64,000 nt of DNA from positions 1-64,000 of IMG/VR virus record IMGVR_UViG_3300049847_000321; one strand, written 5' to 3'. Below, in pieces: positions 1,240 through 15,152 of this stretch. The first letter of the stretch is position 1. Each line of letters opens with the position of its first letter. The position numbers were made by a program, and so were the translations under genes. The notes beneath the pieces are model-generated. The model was not told where the DNA came from. It searched no databases and worked only from the letters and a program-made list of their open reading frames with translations. Source of the DNA: a virus.

Positions 1240-1626
1240 ATGATTTCCTTTACTGTAGACCGAAGGCCAGGTCATCGCTCTCAAAGAGCGTACCAACTTC
1301 TACGAGAATCAATTAACCGAGAACTTGACCTAGCAGAAGCTAGGGGCTGTGAGGTTGTACTGTCAATTGAAAACCAATTGCATGACGATTATTTGGCAGA
1401 TGGTAGAATTGACATGTCTGTAGTAGGCAGGATAATTACAATTTACATTCAAGGTGAATTACATCTCAACCATTCAAATGGAGACAAGAATGCCGATCAA
1501 GGGGTTTTTCCCGACAACAGCCTTAACGATGGCAAGGGAAACGCAATCACTGGTCCCGAAGTGCGGGCTTTGCCAGCTTTACAAGACCTGCCAAAGCCCG
1601 AAGATGGAGCCGACGGGCAGAGGTGA
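1240..1626 (+). CDS. Hypothetical protein, paralogue B with overprinted C-terminus (128 aa)
   Basis: This is the tandem paralogue of the gene ending at 1239; the shared part runs from MISFTV to about IQGEL (residue 75). There the sister gene stops, but this one continues for about 50 residues. The extra part has low-complexity composition and lies over the first 137 nt of the UDG gene in another frame. The simplest reading is that the original stop was lost and the tail is overprinted. AGGAG at 1228-1232 serves the start. Function unknown. Confidence 0.6.
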   Translation: MISFTVDRRPGHRSQRAYQLLRESINRELDLAEARGCEVVLSIENQLHDDYLADGRIDMSVVGRIITIYIQGELHLNHSNGDKNADQGVFPDNSLNDGKGNAITGPEVRALPALQDLPKPEDGADGQR

Positions 1627-2686
1627 ATGTCGAGTCTTAATTGTAGGTGAAGCACCTGGGGCCACCGAAGATGAAGAAGGTAGACAGTTTATAGGTGAGT
1701 CTGGTCAGATTCTGCGCGACACAATCAAATCATTGGGGTTCATGCCAAACAGAGATTGTTGGATCACCAATGCCATTATCTGTCGGCCACCTAACAATGT
1801 CATTCCGCATAAGAATGTGATAGACTGGTGCCGCCCAAATCTGTTGAATACGATCAAAGAGAAGATGCCACAGGTTATCATTCTCTGCGGAAGCACAGCC
1901 GTCTCAAGTTTATTAGGTCATCTGTGGAAAGATGAAGTAGGTACAATCAGTCGATGGGTTGGCTGGCAGATTCCGAATATGAAATTGAATGCCTGGATCT
2001 GCCCGACGTTTCATCCGTCGTTCTTGCTGCGAACAAAAGATGACATGTTGACTAAGATGTTCAAACAGCACCTGAAAAAGGCATTTGCTCTTGAAGGCTG
2101 TCCATTCATCAAGCCACCGAATTACAAAGAACGAATCAAGGTCTTGATAGGCAAGGAAGATGAAGTCTGTGAAACCTTAGAAAAGTTCATGGGCAAAGGC
2201 CACCCAATTGCATTCGATTACGAAACCAACATGTTGAAACCTGACAGTGACAAGGCCCGCATTGTTTCGTGTTCCGTATCTAATGGAACAGAAACGATTG
2301 CTTATCCATGGCATGGCAAAAAAGTGATTAATACAACCCGTGCTATATTGCGTTCTCCCGTGCCCAAAATTGCAGCGAACATGAAGTTCGAGCAGCGATG
2401 GACAAGGGCCAAACTCAAATGTAACGTGCGCAATTGGGACTTCGATACGATGATTGCCGCGCACGTCTTAGACCATCGGCCTGATATTACTTCCTTGAAG
2501 TTCTTGGCTTTTGCAGTATTAGGCCAAGGTGATTACGATTCGCATATCGCGCCTTACTTGAAAGGCAAGGGCGGTAACTTCGAGAATCGAATCAAAGAAG
2601 TCGATCTACCCAATCTGTTGCTTTACAACGGCATGGACGCCTTACTTGAATTCCATCTGGCAAGAGTACAAAAGGAGCAACTATGA
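1490..2686 (+). CDS. Uracil-DNA glycosylase fused to a DnaQ-like 3'-5' exonuclease
   Basis: The protein has two domains. Residues 20-205 match family 4/5 uracil-DNA glycosylases: GEAPG at 53-57, HPSFL at 175-179, and four cysteines (25, 28, 98, 114) placed like the Fe-S ligands of that family. Residues 215-398 form the proofreading exonuclease normally found in PolA: FDYET at 242-246 (Exo I), NMKFE at 297-301 (Exo II) and YNGMD at 379-383 (Exo III). The polymerase domain is the next gene, which starts in this gene's stop. The enzyme probably removes uracil from phage DNA and edits during replication. The start at 1490 (GGAGA upstream) was chosen over the ATG at 1454, which has no ribosome site and adds unrelated residues. 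Confidence 0.9.
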   Translation: MPIKGFFPTTALTMARETQSLVPKCGLCQLYKTCQSPKMEPTGRGECRVLIVGEAPGATEDEEGRQFIGESGQILRDTIKSLGFMPNRDCWITNAIICRPPNNVIPHKNVIDWCRPNLLNTIKEKMPQVIILCGSTAVSSLLGHLWKDEVGTISRWVGWQIPNMKLNAWICPTFHPSFLLRTKDDMLTKMFKQHLKKAFALEGCPFIKPPNYKERIKVLIGKEDEVCETLEKFMGKGHPIAFDYETNMLKPDSDKARIVSCSVSNGTETIAYPWHGKKVINTTRAILRSPVPKIAANMKFEQRWTRAKLKCNVRNWDFDTMIAAHVLDHRPDITSLKFLAFAVLGQGDYDSHIAPYLKGKGGNFENRIKEVDLPNLLLYNGMDALLEFHLARVQKEQL

Positions 2687-4071
2687 AAGCCACCAAAAAA
2701 GATGCCTACAAATTATTCCACGATGGCACATTGGCACTGGCAGAGATTGAAGGCAACGGTATTAGAGTCGATATAGATTATCTTAACACGAAAATAGAAA
2801 AGACTGATAAAAAGATTGTCAGGTTGCAGAATCGTCTCAAGGCAGATAAGGTGTTCAAGACGTGGCGGCGAAGATACGGTGGCAAGACAAACCTGGGCAG
2901 TCGTGAACAACTCGGTGAGATCATCTTTACAGAACTTGGGTACAAATGTTCTGAGTACACAAAAGGTGGCAGGCCGAAAGCTGACGAACATACCTTAGCG
3001 AGCGTTGATCTCCAGTTTGTCAAAGACTATCTCCTGATTGAGAAATTAAAGAAGGCTAATGGAACGTACCTCAAAGGCATTCGCCGCGAAGTCTGTAATG
3101 GCTATCTACATCCGAGTTTCAGCCTAGGCTTGGCCAGGACATATCGTTCAAGTTCTCAGGATCCGAATTTTCAGAACATTCCTATTCGTAATCCTGAAAT
3201 CAGCAAACTGATTCGCAATTGCTTTATACCTAGATTGCCTGATCGACATTTGGTTGAAATTGATTACGGCGGCATCGAGGTCAAAATTGCGGCGTGTTAC
3301 AACAAAGATCCTATGATGATTCGCTACATCAAAGATCCGAAATCAGACATGCACCGAGATATGGCCGCGCAGATATTTATGATGAAGAACGAACAGGTGA
3401 GTAAACTGACTAGGTATATTGCCAAGAACATGTTTGTGTTTCCAGAGTTTTATGGCAGCTATCATGTTGACGTTGCCAAGAATCTCTGGGAAGGCATCGA
3501 CAGGTTGAAGCCGACAATTGAAGGTAGTGACTTGTCAGTGAGAGATCATTTGACTAAGAAGGGTCTGAAAAAGCGAGGTGCCTGCAAACATGGTGAAAAG
3601 CCGATGCCAGGTACATTTGAATCTCACATTCAGAAAGTCGAGCATGATTTTTGGAACAATCATTTTCGGGTTTACAATGATTGGAAAAAAACATGGTATC
3701 AAAAGTATTTAGAACGTGGGTATTTCGATATGCTGACTGGCTTTCGTGTTGATGGTTGGCATAAGCGGAATGACGTGACGAACTACCCAGTGCAAGGGGC
3801 GGCTTTCCATTGCTTGCTGAAAAGCCTGATCGAATTGCAGAACTGGTTAAACAGCAGAGACATGGGTGCACTGATTGTTGGTCAAATTCACGATTCAATC
3901 ATTGCTGACGTTCCTGCGAAGGAGTTAAAGTTGTTTCTCCGAAAAGCCAAAGAGATTATGACTCAGAGAATTCCTGAATTGTGGAAATGGATCATCGTGC
4001 CGCTTGAAGTCGAAGCCGAAGTCGCTCCGGCAGGTGATAGTTGGTTCAAGAAAGAAAAGGTCGCCATCTAA
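2683..4071 (+). CDS. DNA polymerase, family A (palm/fingers/thumb only)
   Basis: This is a polymerase of 462 aa without exonuclease, because the editing domain lies in the preceding gene. Motif A is DYGGIE at about 194-199, with the catalytic Asp. Motif B (the O-helix) has R244 and K248 ahead of Y257-G258. Motif C is HDS at 403-405. The O-helix has one residue more than E. coli Pol I between Lys and Tyr-Gly, and reads FVFPEFYG, as in a number of phage PolA proteins. The ATGA overlap with the UDG-exonuclease gene implies coupled synthesis and probably a two-subunit enzyme. It is the only replicative polymerase in the window. Confidence 0.93.
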   Translation: MKATKKDAYKLFHDGTLALAEIEGNGIRVDIDYLNTKIEKTDKKIVRLQNRLKADKVFKTWRRRYGGKTNLGSREQLGEIIFTELGYKCSEYTKGGRPKADEHTLASVDLQFVKDYLLIEKLKKANGTYLKGIRREVCNGYLHPSFSLGLARTYRSSSQDPNFQNIPIRNPEISKLIRNCFIPRLPDRHLVEIDYGGIEVKIAACYNKDPMMIRYIKDPKSDMHRDMAAQIFMMKNEQVSKLTRYIAKNMFVFPEFYGSYHVDVAKNLWEGIDRLKPTIEGSDLSVRDHLTKKGLKKRGACKHGEKPMPGTFESHIQKVEHDFWNNHFRVYNDWKKTWYQKYLERGYFDMLTGFRVDGWHKRNDVTNYPVQGAAFHCLLKSLIELQNWLNSRDMGALIVGQIHDSIIADVPAKELKLFLRKAKEIMTQRIPELWKWIIVPLEVEAEVAPAGDSWFKKEKVAI

Positions 4072-10478: not shown

Positions 10479-11129
10479 ATGAAACTAATACCACTAGCCC
10501 TTCTACGAAAGAAAGGTGCCTGCCAAAAGCAACTATCTCTGATAGAAAACGAATGGCCTAGCGGCATACCGCTTACGCAAGAGACTGCCGAAAGGTTCCT
10601 AGAACTGGAACTTGATATTGACTGGGTAGTAGAGAACCTGCTGACTGAGCAAGAGCAGACAGAATGCGAAAGGATTCAACAACCTGCAAAAGCAGAATAC
10701 GAAAGGATCGAACAACCTGCATTAGCAGAATACGAAAGGATCACACAACCTGCATTAGCAGAATACGAAAGGATCACACAACCTGCAAAAGCAGAATACT
10801 TAAGGATCGAACAACCTGCATATGCAGAATACTTAAGGATCGAACAACTTGCATTAGTAGAATACTTAAGGATTCAACAACCTGCAAAAGCAGAATACAA
10901 TAGGATTCAACAACTTGCATCAGCAGAATACAAAAGGATCGAACAACCTGCATGGGCAGAATACTTAAGGATTCAACAACCTGCATTAGCAGAATACAAA
11001 AGGATTCAACAACCTGCATTAGCAGAATACTTCAGGATTAAACAACCTGCATTAGCAGAATACAAAAGGAAGAAAGTCATGGCTATTCTGGAACTACTTC
11101 TCAAACGAAAGGAAGAAAACGGACAATGA
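10479..11129 (+). CDS. 11-residue repeat protein, copy 2 (216 aa)
   Basis: The ends are the same as in the other four copies: MKLIPLALLRKKGACQKQLS at the start and VMAILELLLKRKEENGQ at the end. Between them are twelve 11-residue units, mostly AEYxRIxQPAx with L, K, Y, W or S at the variable place. The first unit is degenerate (TECERIQQPAK). The ribosome site AAGGAGACC, 7 nt before the ATG, is the family leader. The gene lies between the FEN and RuvC genes and overlaps the RuvC start (ATGA). It thus interrupts a DNA-metabolism operon without breaking translation. Function unknown. Confidence 0.85.
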   Translation: MKLIPLALLRKKGACQKQLSLIENEWPSGIPLTQETAERFLELELDIDWVVENLLTEQEQTECERIQQPAKAEYERIEQPALAEYERITQPALAEYERITQPAKAEYLRIEQPAYAEYLRIEQLALVEYLRIQQPAKAEYNRIQQLASAEYKRIEQPAWAEYLRIQQPALAEYKRIQQPALAEYFRIKQPALAEYKRKKVMAILELLLKRKEENGQ

Positions 11130-12061: not shown

Positions 12062-12422
12062 AGAGGTTAAATTCATTCGATGCAGAGGGCTATGTAGTTC
12101 ATGCCACTCGAACCCATATGTGTTGAAGAAATTCCCTTCTAAAAACAATAAAGACACCTTACCTAATAACAAACAACTCAAAATACCCAAATATCCGACA
12201 CTTGCCCCTGCGGGCTCCTTAGATAAAATTCAAGTGCTGATTCAACGGCGTGATAATGGAGAAGATTTATGGCACCCATTAGATAATCCGAGAATGACAA
12301 ATGAAATTCGAGTTTCTGGTTATCGTTCTAACAAAATTGAACGAATAGGGCAACTACCAATTAGAGAAAGAAACAGAACCAATGCTAAAAAGTCTCGAAC
12401 TAAAAAACTTCCAAAGACATAA
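12033..12422 (+). CDS. Zinc-finger hypothetical protein (129 aa)
   Basis: A GTG start at 12033 has AAGGAGG at 12020-12026 with 6-nt spacing. The N-terminus has two Cys pairs, CLHCEE and CRGLCSSCHSNP, a compact four-to-five cysteine zinc knuckle. Similar CxxC...CxxC heads occur on small phage proteins of unknown role. The remainder is basic and Pro/Asn-rich, without clear secondary structure. The last 41 nt overlap the SbcC N-half start. Confidence 0.65.
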   Translation: MGKMKCLHCEEVKFIRCRGLCSSCHSNPYVLKKFPSKNNKDTLPNNKQLKIPKYPTLAPAGSLDKIQVLIQRRDNGEDLWHPLDNPRMTNEIRVSGYRSNKIERIGQLPIRERNRTNAKKSRTKKLPKT

Positions 12423-13488
12423 GTATTATAAATTGGAGTTTGATCGTGTCACAACAATCATCGGACCTAGTGATTCGGGTAAGTCGGCCATCATTAGGGC
12501 TTTGCGATTTGTCGCATTCAACAGACCTAACAATAAACGCATTATTAAACATGGGGCTTCCTGCGCATCTGTTAGATTGCACGTTGCCGGAAAAAGTATT
12601 TTACGCAAGCGTGGGAACAGACGAACAAACCTTTATCGAATTGATTCAAAAACGTTTCGGGCGATCGGAAGTAAAGTTCCGGACGCCATAGCCAGTATTC
12701 TGAACCTTTCAGAAGTCAACTTTCAAAAACAACTTGATCTGCACTTTTGGTTTGCTGATACGCCAGGTCAAGTATCGAAGGCATTGAATCAGATTGTCAA
12801 TCTAGGTAAGATTGACACCTCATTGGCTTACGTCGCCAATCTGCAACGAAAAACCAAAGCCAAGATTGAAGTGCTGCAAGATTCGATTGCCGACCTGAAA
12901 TCTGAGAAAAGTCAGTTAGATTGGGTTCCACGGTTTCTATCTGATTTGTCGGCATTGTCGGCCATATTTGCCGATATGGCCAGTAATGGCCCTAGAATCG
13001 CTTTATTGGCATCGTGCGCCGAAAGTATGGCCAATAGCCTATCGGCCCGTGCGCGTGCGGCTAATGCGATTATAGGGGCTTCAAATGCCGTTCAAATTGG
13101 CAGTCGAGCCATTGACATACAGAACCGACGAATGAAGTTGAAACGACTTGTTTCTGACCTGAGTCATGCCATCAAACTGACGAACTTACCTATTCCTGAT
13201 TTGAATGATTTGAACAAGCAACGAATTAAAGCGGATGCCATTGCCGATAAAAATTTAGGTTTGTTTAATCTGATCCAAGAAATAAGAGAGGCTAATAAGA
13301 ACCTATGCGAAGCAAAAGCGAGTCTGGAAGTAGAAGCAAGACAGTTAGAAAAGGTAACAAAGGGGAAATGTCCGACGTGCGGAAAAGAGTCATCGCAATT
13401 TCTTGCGGTGACTTACACTTCTCAGAAAAGGCACCTGTCGCCCGTGCAGAGAAGGAAGATTGGCTTGAAGTGCAAGCACGATACCTAA
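12382..13488 (+). CDS. SbcC/Rad50 N-terminal half with Walker A and zinc hook
   Basis: The 368-aa protein starts LKSLELKNFQRHKYYKLEF and has Walker A GPSDSGKS at 28-35, with the N-terminal lobe of SbcC/Rad50 after it. A helical region (about 145-325) leads to the hook motif KGKCPTCGKE, with CPTC near 330-333. Nothing resembling the returning half follows: the signature and Walker B motifs are in a separate gene at 14550. The last 35 residues, after the hook, are basic and overlap the SbcD gene, so they are probably overprinted. A dimeric ATPase could be assembled from the two halves. Confidence 0.85.
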   Translation: MLKSLELKNFQRHKYYKLEFDRVTTIIGPSDSGKSAIIRALRFVAFNRPNNKRIIKHGASCASVRLHVAGKSILRKRGNRRTNLYRIDSKTFRAIGSKVPDAIASILNLSEVNFQKQLDLHFWFADTPGQVSKALNQIVNLGKIDTSLAYVANLQRKTKAKIEVLQDSIADLKSEKSQLDWVPRFLSDLSALSAIFADMASNGPRIALLASCAESMANSLSARARAANAIIGASNAVQIGSRAIDIQNRRMKLKRLVSDLSHAIKLTNLPIPDLNDLNKQRIKADAIADKNLGLFNLIQEIREANKNLCEAKASLEVEARQLEKVTKGKCPTCGKESSQFLAVTYTSQKRHLSPVQRRKIGLKCKHDT

Positions 13489-14321
13489 AGCAATTGAATG
13501 AGTTGTCAAGTCAACATGACAACGTTCCGATACTTTGCAGCGGCGATATATTCAATCAATGGAACAGTAGTCCTGCGCTTATCAATTTCTTGATTAAACG
13601 AATGCCACGGAATATGTACGCCATACCGGGCAATCACGATTTACCTTTGCACAATTATGACGATATTAAAAAGTCAGCATATTGGACACTTGTTGAAGCG
13701 GAGGCAATCACTGATCTACAACCAATGCCTGAATGCAGTAGTCATATGTTCGAGGATATGATTGTGTGCCCGTATCCGTACAGTTATCCGTGCCCATATA
13801 ATCCAGCAAAAGAAAAAGGGAATAAAATTTGTGTGGCGTTGATTCACGACTACATTTGGATCGACAAGTGCGGTTTCCCAAATGCAAACCCTTCTCGACG
13901 GATTTCTGAAAACAGCGAATGGGCAAAAAATCTTAAAGGTTTTGATGTTGCCATATTTGGTGATAATCATATCGGATTCAAAACAACGTGTAACAAAGGT
14001 AAGACAATAATCTTGAATGGCGGTGCATTCATGCGCCGCAACATCGACCAGATCAAATACAAACCTTTTGTTGGCTTGATCTACAGTGACGGTTCTGTTG
14101 AACAGCATTACCTTGACGTGTTTGAGGATAAGTTCATTGAAACAAAACTTGAATGGAACGGCAATGAAATTGACATGAGTGATTTCTTGGAAACGCTTAA
14201 GAACGGAAGTAAAGCTGTCATTGATTTCACAGAAGCGGTTGAAAACTATCTGTCAAATCCGAAGTCACCGCTTTCAAAACAAGTGCGAAAGATTGTACGA
14301 GAGGCATTGGAGCAAACATGA
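13368..14321 (+). CDS. SbcD/Mre11-like metallophosphoesterase nuclease
   Basis: The nuclease has 317 aa starting at 13368 (AGGGGA upstream); the ATG lies within the codons of the SbcC hook. Metal motifs are CGDLHFSE, CSGDIFNQ, PGNHDLP, LIHDYIW and IFGDNHIGF, which match the five motifs of SbcD/Mre11. It is the nuclease partner of the split SbcC and would process DNA ends or hairpins during recombination-dependent replication. It overlaps a coiled-coil gene by 4 nt (ATGA). Confidence 0.9.
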   Translation: MSDVRKRVIAISCGDLHFSEKAPVARAEKEDWLEVQARYLKQLNELSSQHDNVPILCSGDIFNQWNSSPALINFLIKRMPRNMYAIPGNHDLPLHNYDDIKKSAYWTLVEAEAITDLQPMPECSSHMFEDMIVCPYPYSYPCPYNPAKEKGNKICVALIHDYIWIDKCGFPNANPSRRISENSEWAKNLKGFDVAIFGDNHIGFKTTCNKGKTIILNGGAFMRRNIDQIKYKPFVGLIYSDGSVEQHYLDVFEDKFIETKLEWNGNEIDMSDFLETLKNGSKAVIDFTEAVENYLSNPKSPLSKQVRKIVREALEQT

Positions 14322-14572
14322 TAATAATGGATGACTACGAAACAGTCAAGAGAAAGGTCGAAGAACTTCAAACCAGAATTGATAGGGCTTCCGGTGCTGT
14401 CAGTCAACTCAAATCGCAGCTCAAAAAAGAATTTGGGGTCAGCACTTTGAAGGAAGCGAAAGCACTCTACAAAAAGATGCTCGCGGAAGAACATGAAGCC
14501 TTGACCAAATGGAATAAGACTTTGGCTAAATTCAAAGAGGATTGGAAAGATGTTATCGAAGGCGATCAGTAA
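14318..14572 (+). CDS. Small coiled-coil protein between SbcD and the SbcC C-half (84 aa)
   Basis: The protein is almost entirely charged helix with heptad pattern (VKRKVEELQTRIDRASGAVS, then LKEAKALYKKML). It starts in the SbcD stop and overlaps the start of the SbcC C-half by 23 nt. Its place is that of the returning coiled coil missing between the two SbcC halves, so it may supply part of the arm. It has no cysteine and so no hook. This is inference from position and helix pattern. Confidence 0.7.
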   Translation: MIIMDDYETVKRKVEELQTRIDRASGAVSQLKSQLKKEFGVSTLKEAKALYKKMLAEEHEALTKWNKTLAKFKEDWKDVIEGDQ

Positions 14573-15152
14573 AGAACTGACTGGTTATAAACGTATCGCG
14601 GAAAAAACCCGCTTAAATCGTTTGTCCCTGATTCAGAGACTAAAAGCCGATAAGTCTGCCCTAAAAGACGGGACAGCGTTTTTAGATAGGGTTATTGAGG
14701 CGCAATCTGTATTGCAGACTATCGCGCAGACTGTGCAACAGAAAGCGCATGAACAAATAGCAACCATCGTTACGCGATGCCTGCAAGTGGTCTTTCCAGA
14801 TGACCCATATGAATTCAAGATTCTGTTTGAAAAGAAAAGGTCGAAAACTGAGGCGCGGCTTGTGTTCTGCCGCAATGGTGAAGAGTTTGATCCGATTGAA
14901 GAAACGGGCGGTGGGTGTGTAGACGTGGCTTCGTTTGCTCTCCGCCTTGCCTGCATGTTGTTGCAGACACCTCAATCACGTAGATTGATGGTACTTGACG
15001 AACCGGTAAAGCACCTTGATGAAAATGCTATTGAAAGGTTCAGAGATTTGATTGAGACGCTGGCGAAAGAAATGAAGGTGCAGTTTATCATAATAACCCA
15101 CTTTGAGCAACTGCAAGCCGGTAAAGTTGTTCGACTCACTAAAAGGAGTTAG
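14550..15152 (+). CDS. SbcC/Rad50 C-terminal half with ABC signature and Walker B
   Basis: The 200-aa protein is helical at first, then holds GGGCVDVASFALRLA (about 119-133), the ABC signature region, followed by LMVLDEPVKHLDENAIERF (Walker B and D-loop) and IIITHFEQL (H-loop). These are the parts absent from the gene at 12382. The start has AGAGG upstream. The two lobes would have to associate to give one nucleotide-binding domain. It has a short coiled coil before the signature and no hook. Confidence 0.87.
   Translation: MLSKAISKELTGYKRIAEKTRLNRLSLIQRLKADKSALKDGTAFLDRVIEAQSVLQTIAQTVQQKAHEQIATIVTRCLQVVFPDDPYEFKILFEKKRSKTEARLVFCRNGEEFDPIEETGGGCVDVASFALRLACMLLQTPQSRRLMVLDEPVKHLDENAIERFRDLIETLAKEMKVQFIIITHFEQLQAGKVVRLTKRS

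What the first reader, a model, noticed from the sequence alone, without database searches (positions are those of the whole stretch)
12382..15152. SbcC/Rad50 split at the zinc hook, with SbcD and a coiled-coil gene in between
The N-half (Walker A plus CPTC hook), SbcD, an 84-aa coiled coil and the C-half (ABC signature and Walker B) are four overlapping genes. In normal SbcC one chain makes both arms. Splitting at the apex would give a three-part machine, with the small coiled coil possibly replacing the returning arm. If functional, hook dimerisation and arm pairing must work differently.
Basis: partly seen in the sequence, partly recalled or inferred. Interest (0 to 1): 0.68.

Follow-up and report, generated by a model that had tools for sequence, protein, structure and literature searches.

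The report
SbcC/Rad50 split at its hook
Many phages and some plasmids make the DNA-break-processing ATPase SbcC/Rad50 as two separate proteins cut exactly at the zinc hook, together with a small helical protein and the usual nuclease partner SbcD, which suggests that this ancient machine does not need to be one chain.

Summary
The N-half (Walker A, arm, terminal CPTC hook), SbcD, an 84-aa two-helix protein and the C-half (signature, Walker B) are four separate overlapping genes. It is not a frameshift or an error. All 67 non-redundant loci first examined, and nearly all of about 110 more, keep the split, nearly always with the small protein. The N-half ends at CxxC in 67 of 67. No relative joins the halves. 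The own record and 25 large related viral records hold a single SbcC N-domain over the cut-off. Three gene layouts occur, including SbcD fused to the N-half on Bacilli plasmids; in one jumbo phage the halves lie about 108 kb apart. N-half and C-half are the two lobes of a Rad50 head by profile and, for the N-half, fold. dN/dS is 0.06-0.38. Best reading: a three-chain SbcC protomer plus SbcD for phage recombination and replication. That the small coiled coil is the returning arm is only partly supported: the length budget against single-chain relatives fits, but it stays near 80 aa while N-half arms vary from 135 to 306 aa. No description of the split was found in the open-access library; a database and a 2011 paper had met the pieces without joining them.

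The parts
12382..13488 (+). SbcC/Rad50 N-half: N-lobe of ABC head, helical arm, terminal zinc hook (368 aa)
   Evidence: Pfam AAA_15/AAA_23; Rad50 profile match 5.6e-13; AF2 pLDDT 84 with helices 141-178, 181-267, 275-326; Foldseek top hits Rad50 3auy, 9a9j, 3av0
12463..12486 (+). Walker A, GPSDSGKS
   Evidence: motif position; G28, G33, K34 invariant in 65 N-halves
13369..13380 (+). zinc hook CPTC at the end of the N-half
   Evidence: motif position; C330 and C333 invariant in 65 aligned N-halves
13368..14321 (+). SbcD/Mre11 nuclease (317 aa)
   Evidence: Pfam Metallophos 3.6e-9; motifs GDLH, GDIF, GNHD, IHDY, GDNH
14318..14572 (+). small two-helix protein (84 aa), conserved third part
   Evidence: 59 relatives aligned, G26 and A47 nearly invariant; AF2 pLDDT 95, helices 3-39 and 44-75
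14550..15152 (+). SbcC/Rad50 C-half: short coil and C-lobe (200 aa)
   Evidence: profile match to Rad50 C-lobe chain 3qkr_B 5.9e-11; PHROG 15167 1.3e-21
14904..14915 (+). ABC signature-type loop TGGG
   Evidence: motif position; G120 and G122 invariant in A1
14985..15005 (+). Walker B, LMVLDEP
   Evidence: motif position; D150 and E151 invariant in A1

Best explanation
This is an SbcCD (Mre11-Rad50) complex whose SbcC protomer is built from three chains. The N-half and C-half associate into one ABC-ATPase head, as the two-chain Rad50 head constructs 1F2T and 3QKR do. Two heads sandwich ATP and work with SbcD to process DNA ends during phage recombination and replication, like T4 gp46/gp47. The N-half carries the outgoing arm and ends at the CxxC hook, so two N-halves can still be joined by one zinc. 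The small two-helix protein together with the short coil of the C-half most likely fills the place of the returning half between hook and head. Shown here: the split, its conservation, the family identities, intact motifs and purifying selection. Inferred: assembly of the chains, zinc binding, nuclease activity, and the position of the small protein.
For: Profile and fold matches to the two Rad50 lobes. Invariant Walker A, Q-loop, hook cysteines, signature glycines and Walker B. SbcD with intact motifs in nearly all complete cassettes. All parts present and separate in 67 non-redundant sets and in 77 of 89 further loci in the same order, in 27 Bacilli loci, and in cultured phages vB_BboS-125 and Mvi-JY20. 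SbcD fused to the N-half on plasmids, with the small protein and C-half next to it. Halves 108 kb apart in Tunturi_5, with a small helical protein beside the N-half. Single N-domain over the cut-off in the own record and in 25 related ones. dN/dS 0.06-0.38 in the two closest usable pairs. Replication and recombination neighbours: PolA, clamp loader, UvsX, 5'-3' exonuclease, resolvase. Lengths: in the LmuB profile the N-half ends at 342 and C-half residue 21 falls at 436 of 611, leaving room for about 74-94 residues.
Against: The small protein does not scale with the N-half arm (Spearman -0.18, p 0.05, about 120 loci), so it cannot pair along the whole of the longer arms. Covariation on 87 arms gave no usable signal. 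The small protein has no detectable similarity to any arm of a solved Rad50. Magritte has an N-half without the hook, so the hook is not needed in every relative.
Confidence: 0.75

Rival explanations
1. The small two-helix protein is not part of the arm but an accessory or regulatory subunit that binds the head, the hook or SbcD, in the manner of an Nbs1-type partner. The rest of the machine is as in the best explanation.
For: Its length is constant (about 80 aa) whatever the N-half arm length; it is predicted as two helices with a conserved break around EFGC; no similarity to Rad50 arms.
Against: Its size fits the gap left between hook and C-half in the single-chain relatives LmuB and ASRP; it is nearly always in the cassette.
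Confidence: 0.3
2. The split is a broken gene: frameshift, assembly error or decaying full-length SbcC.
For: Overlapping reading frames in the window; the C-half lies in another frame than the small gene.
Against: SbcD lies between the halves; the frame relation varies between loci; the same split in about 160 loci and in sequenced isolates; purifying selection on all parts; no joined relative found.
Confidence: 0.01
3. The two halves no longer act together: each was recruited to its own role.
For: In Tunturi_5, Magritte and the Jeotgalibacillus plasmid they are far apart.
Against: Both are kept together in the genomes examined, and each alone lacks half of the ATP site (general ABC-ATPase knowledge); 9 of 10 plasmid records with a C-half also match the SbcD-N-half protein or its parts.
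Confidence: 0.05
4. The halves are joined after or during synthesis, by trans-splicing or programmed frameshifting.
For: None beyond the overlap of small gene and C-half.
Against: Gene order puts SbcD between; frames differ from locus to locus; no extra sequence at the junction that could be a split intein: N-halves end within a few residues of CxxC.
Confidence: 0.01

Closest known systems
SbcC/Rad50 with SbcD/Mre11, including T4 gp46/gp47
   Same: Both ATPase lobes, CxxC hook, SbcD partner, recombination and replication neighbourhood.
   Different: One chain there; here two chains cut at the hook plus a small third one, with short arms.
Two-chain Rad50 head constructs in the PDB (1F2T, 1F2U, 1II8, 3QKR)
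   Same: N-lobe and C-lobe as separate polypeptides that form one head; they are direct profile hits.
   Different: Those were made in the laboratory; this is a natural arrangement with the hook kept on the N-half.
Mre11/Rad50 fusion proteins (Yoshida et al. 2011, PMC3175470)
   Same: SbcD-N-half fusions on Bacilli plasmids. The paper says that one ATPase segment was not observed in the fusions of Anaerostipes and Bacillus phage 0305phi8-36, accession A7KV18; A7KV18 is the second-best viral fold match of our N-half.
   Different: The missing C-half, the small protein and the cut at the hook were not reported in the passages read.
PHROG 16465 'exonuclease', 18563 unknown, 15167 'ATPase'
   Same: These three families are the Bacilli N-half, small protein and C-half; the window N-half and C-half hit 16465 and 15167.
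   Different: Listed as separate families; not linked as parts of one SbcC.
Lamassu LmuB and archaeal ASRP
   Same: Short single-chain SMC-like ATPases; the window halves align to consecutive parts of LmuB, and the N-half including the hook to ASRP.
   Different: Single chain; the window has SbcD and no defence-system context.

Membership tests
SbcC/Rad50 | N-lobe with Walker A and Q-loop | tested here: met
SbcC/Rad50 | C-lobe with signature, Walker B and H-loop | tested here: met
   the signature is S/T-GGG, not SGGE/Q
SbcC/Rad50 | CxxC zinc hook at the arm end | tested here: met
   67 of 67 N-halves; zinc binding itself not testable here
SbcC/Rad50 | Both lobes and both arms on one chain | tested here: not met
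   separate genes in every locus
SbcC/Rad50 | Partner SbcD/Mre11 nuclease | tested here: met
   SbcD in the cassette, or fused to the N-half
SbcC/Rad50 | ATP-dependent DNA end processing | not testable with these tools
   needs purified proteins
SbcD/Mre11 | Phosphoesterase metal-binding motifs | tested here: met
   GDLH, GDIF, GNHD, IHDY, GDNH; the His206 equivalent is Asp in 147 of 167, as in Mimivirus R555
Lamassu LmuB | Member of a Lamassu defence operon, single chain | tested here: not met
   split, with SbcD, in a replication operon
PHROG 16465/18563/15167 set | Profile match of all three parts | tested here: inconclusive
   window N- and C-half match; the small protein has no match at 0.001, while Bacilli ones match 18563

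The most novel reading that the evidence does not exclude
A modular, openable Rad50. The N-half arms come in steps of about 43-44 residues (roughly 3 to 7 modules) while the small two-helix protein and the C-half stay constant, so the returning side is supplied in trans by a fixed clip that can be exchanged or released, letting the arm open at the apex without ATP-driven head opening.
Probability: 0.15. Interest if true: 0.8.

Novelty: new variant of a known kind. Interest (0 to 1): 0.62.

Why it matters
Rad50 and SMC proteins are thought of as one chain that folds back on itself at a hinge or hook. A natural version cut exactly there, kept in many phages and on plasmids, makes it possible to test what the covalent link at the apex is for, gives a small ready-made system for structural work, and gives a role to several orphan phage families (PHROG 16465, 18563, 15167) and possibly to the half-missing Mre11/Rad50 fusions reported in 2011.

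Tried and rejected
Frameshift, error or pseudogene: rejected. Covariation on 87 four-module arms to find the fold-back point: best antiparallel z about 2.7 over the arm, not above multiple testing. Foldseek with the small protein found nothing usable (best E 4.4, TM 0.35), so hairpin versus extended form stays open. Small protein against Pfam, PHROG and PDB profiles: only scattered coiled-coil noise. The search with the N-half alignment could not be run. The record of phage 0305phi8-36 is not in the collections under the two accessions tried, so whether it carries a C-half is unchecked. Defence system considered (LmuB, mad3 and AriA hits) and rejected because of SbcD and the replication neighbourhood.

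Full report
Check of the observation. The N-half carries Walker A, the Q-loop and a terminal CPTC. SbcD most likely starts at 13368, so its start codon overlaps the codons of the hook. The 84-aa gene starts in the ATGA of the SbcD stop. The C-half has its own AGAGGA-type site inside the end of the 84-aa gene. Pfam and PDB profiles identify the N-half and C-half as the N-lobe and C-lobe of Rad50, and Foldseek confirms the N-half. SbcD is a calcineurin-type phosphoesterase.

Is it real and general? A protein scan of IMG/VR with the C-half found 13 loci. An alignment-based scan found 317 relatives, of which the best 80 were kept. A second found 507, of which the best 80 were kept. HMMs of the four parts were run over all ORFs of these loci. 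In 67 non-redundant sets the N-half, small protein and C-half are separate genes and CxxC stands at the N-half end in 67 of 67, within the last 45 residues in 66. In the second set 77 of 89 loci have all four genes in the same order; most of the rest are cut by contig ends. A Bacilli branch of 27 loci, many from sequenced isolates, keeps the same split with longer N-halves. No locus joins N-half and C-half in one ORF. The window's 77-kb record has one AAA_23 match. Twenty-five related viral records have one over the cut-off each; two of them show a second match below it. In the two pairs close enough to measure, dN/dS is 0.38 and 0.24 (N-half), 0.18 and 0.20 (SbcD), 0.23 and 0.32 (small protein), and 0.06 and 0.10 (C-half). 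One locus, L058, has no recognisable small protein between SbcD and the C-half.

Layouts. Main branch: N-half, SbcD, small protein, C-half. vB_BboS-125 and B. velezensis p3: N-half, small protein, C-half, then SbcD. P. polymyxa SC2 and G. subterraneus plasmids: SbcD and N-half fused in one protein of 841 or 801 aa that still ends about 25 residues after CxxC, followed by a 96- or 92-aa small protein and a 215- or 212-aa C-half. In Tunturi_5 the N-half, with a 97-aa helical protein and SbcD, lies about 108 kb from the C-half on the other strand. In Magritte the halves are about 93 kb apart along the record and the N-half has lost the hook. The break at the hook is therefore the constant feature, whatever the gene order.

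Arms. Measured from the conserved ID motif to CxxC, 120 N-halves fall in 135-149 (23), 175-204 (87), 220-244 (9) and 265 (1), with none between; the Bacilli example vB_BboS-125 is near 306 on the cruder measure. This looks like steps of about 43-44 residues, though shared descent may produce part of the clustering. The small protein stays at 79.7 +/- 4.4 aa and the C-half start-to-signature distance at 109.3 +/- 0.7. AF2 gives the window N-half a head and helices 141-178, 181-267 and 275-326, and the small protein two helices, 3-39 and 44-75. Against single-chain LmuB the N-half ends at profile position 342 and C-half residue 21 falls at 436, so the missing stretch has about the size of the small protein. 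The length budget thus favours its being the hook-proximal returning piece, and its constant length speaks against full-length pairing. The question is open.

Mechanism. The most likely picture is a three-chain SbcC protomer. The halves close one ATPase head, SbcD docks as usual, and two N-halves share a zinc at the hook. The genes sit behind PolA, clamp loader, UvsX-like recombinase, 5'-3' exonuclease and a resolvase, so a role like T4 gp46/gp47 in recombination-dependent replication is expected (established knowledge of that pathway; phage SbcC is essential in SPN3US, PMC5105663).

Known or new. Full-text searches for split SbcC or Rad50 found no description, but the library holds only open-licence papers. 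PHROGs lists the Bacilli parts as three unlinked families. Yoshida et al. 2011 noted Mre11/Rad50 fusions lacking one ATPase segment (PMC3175470), and the one from Bacillus phage 0305phi8-36 (A7KV18) is the second-best viral fold match of our N-half. A jumbo-phage survey describes SbcC and SbcD as near-universal without mentioning a split in the passages found (PMC7824862). I therefore rate it a new variant of a known kind.

Noticed in passing
window 1454-4071: The phage DNA polymerase is also split: UDG plus 3'-5' exonuclease (1454-2686) and the PolA polymerase domain (2683-4071) match consecutive parts of one PHROG profile (phrog_17, 478-826 and 834-1235).
   Followed up: partly
window 10479-11129: A 216-aa ORF made largely of tandem repeats of about 12 residues of the type AEYxRIxQPALA; function unknown, weak PHROG hits only.
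   Followed up: no
window 13368-14321 and relatives: In 147 of 167 SbcD sequences the late metal motif is GDNH-like instead of GHxH (His206 to Asp), the change reported in Mimivirus R555; Bacilli members such as vB_BboS-125 keep GHDH.
   Followed up: partly
L208 N-half: The N-half runs on after the hook into what looks like a NUMOD4/HNH homing endonuclease; in vB_BboS-125 an AP2-domain gene sits at the same place (L015 4023-4595).
   Followed up: no
L015 5863-6843 (NC_048735.1): The SbcD gene of Bacillus phage vB_BboS-125 is not annotated in the public record.
   Followed up: yes
L101 4001-5053 (Microbacterium phage Magritte gp155): N-half without the terminal CxxC; no small protein recognised nearby.
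   Followed up: partly
N-halves of 120 loci: Arm lengths fall in steps of about 43-44 residues with empty gaps between.
   Followed up: partly
L210, L214: Cassettes in contigs labelled Thermoplasmata and Nanoarchaeota MAGs, possibly viral contigs binned with archaea or true archaeal viruses.
   Followed up: no
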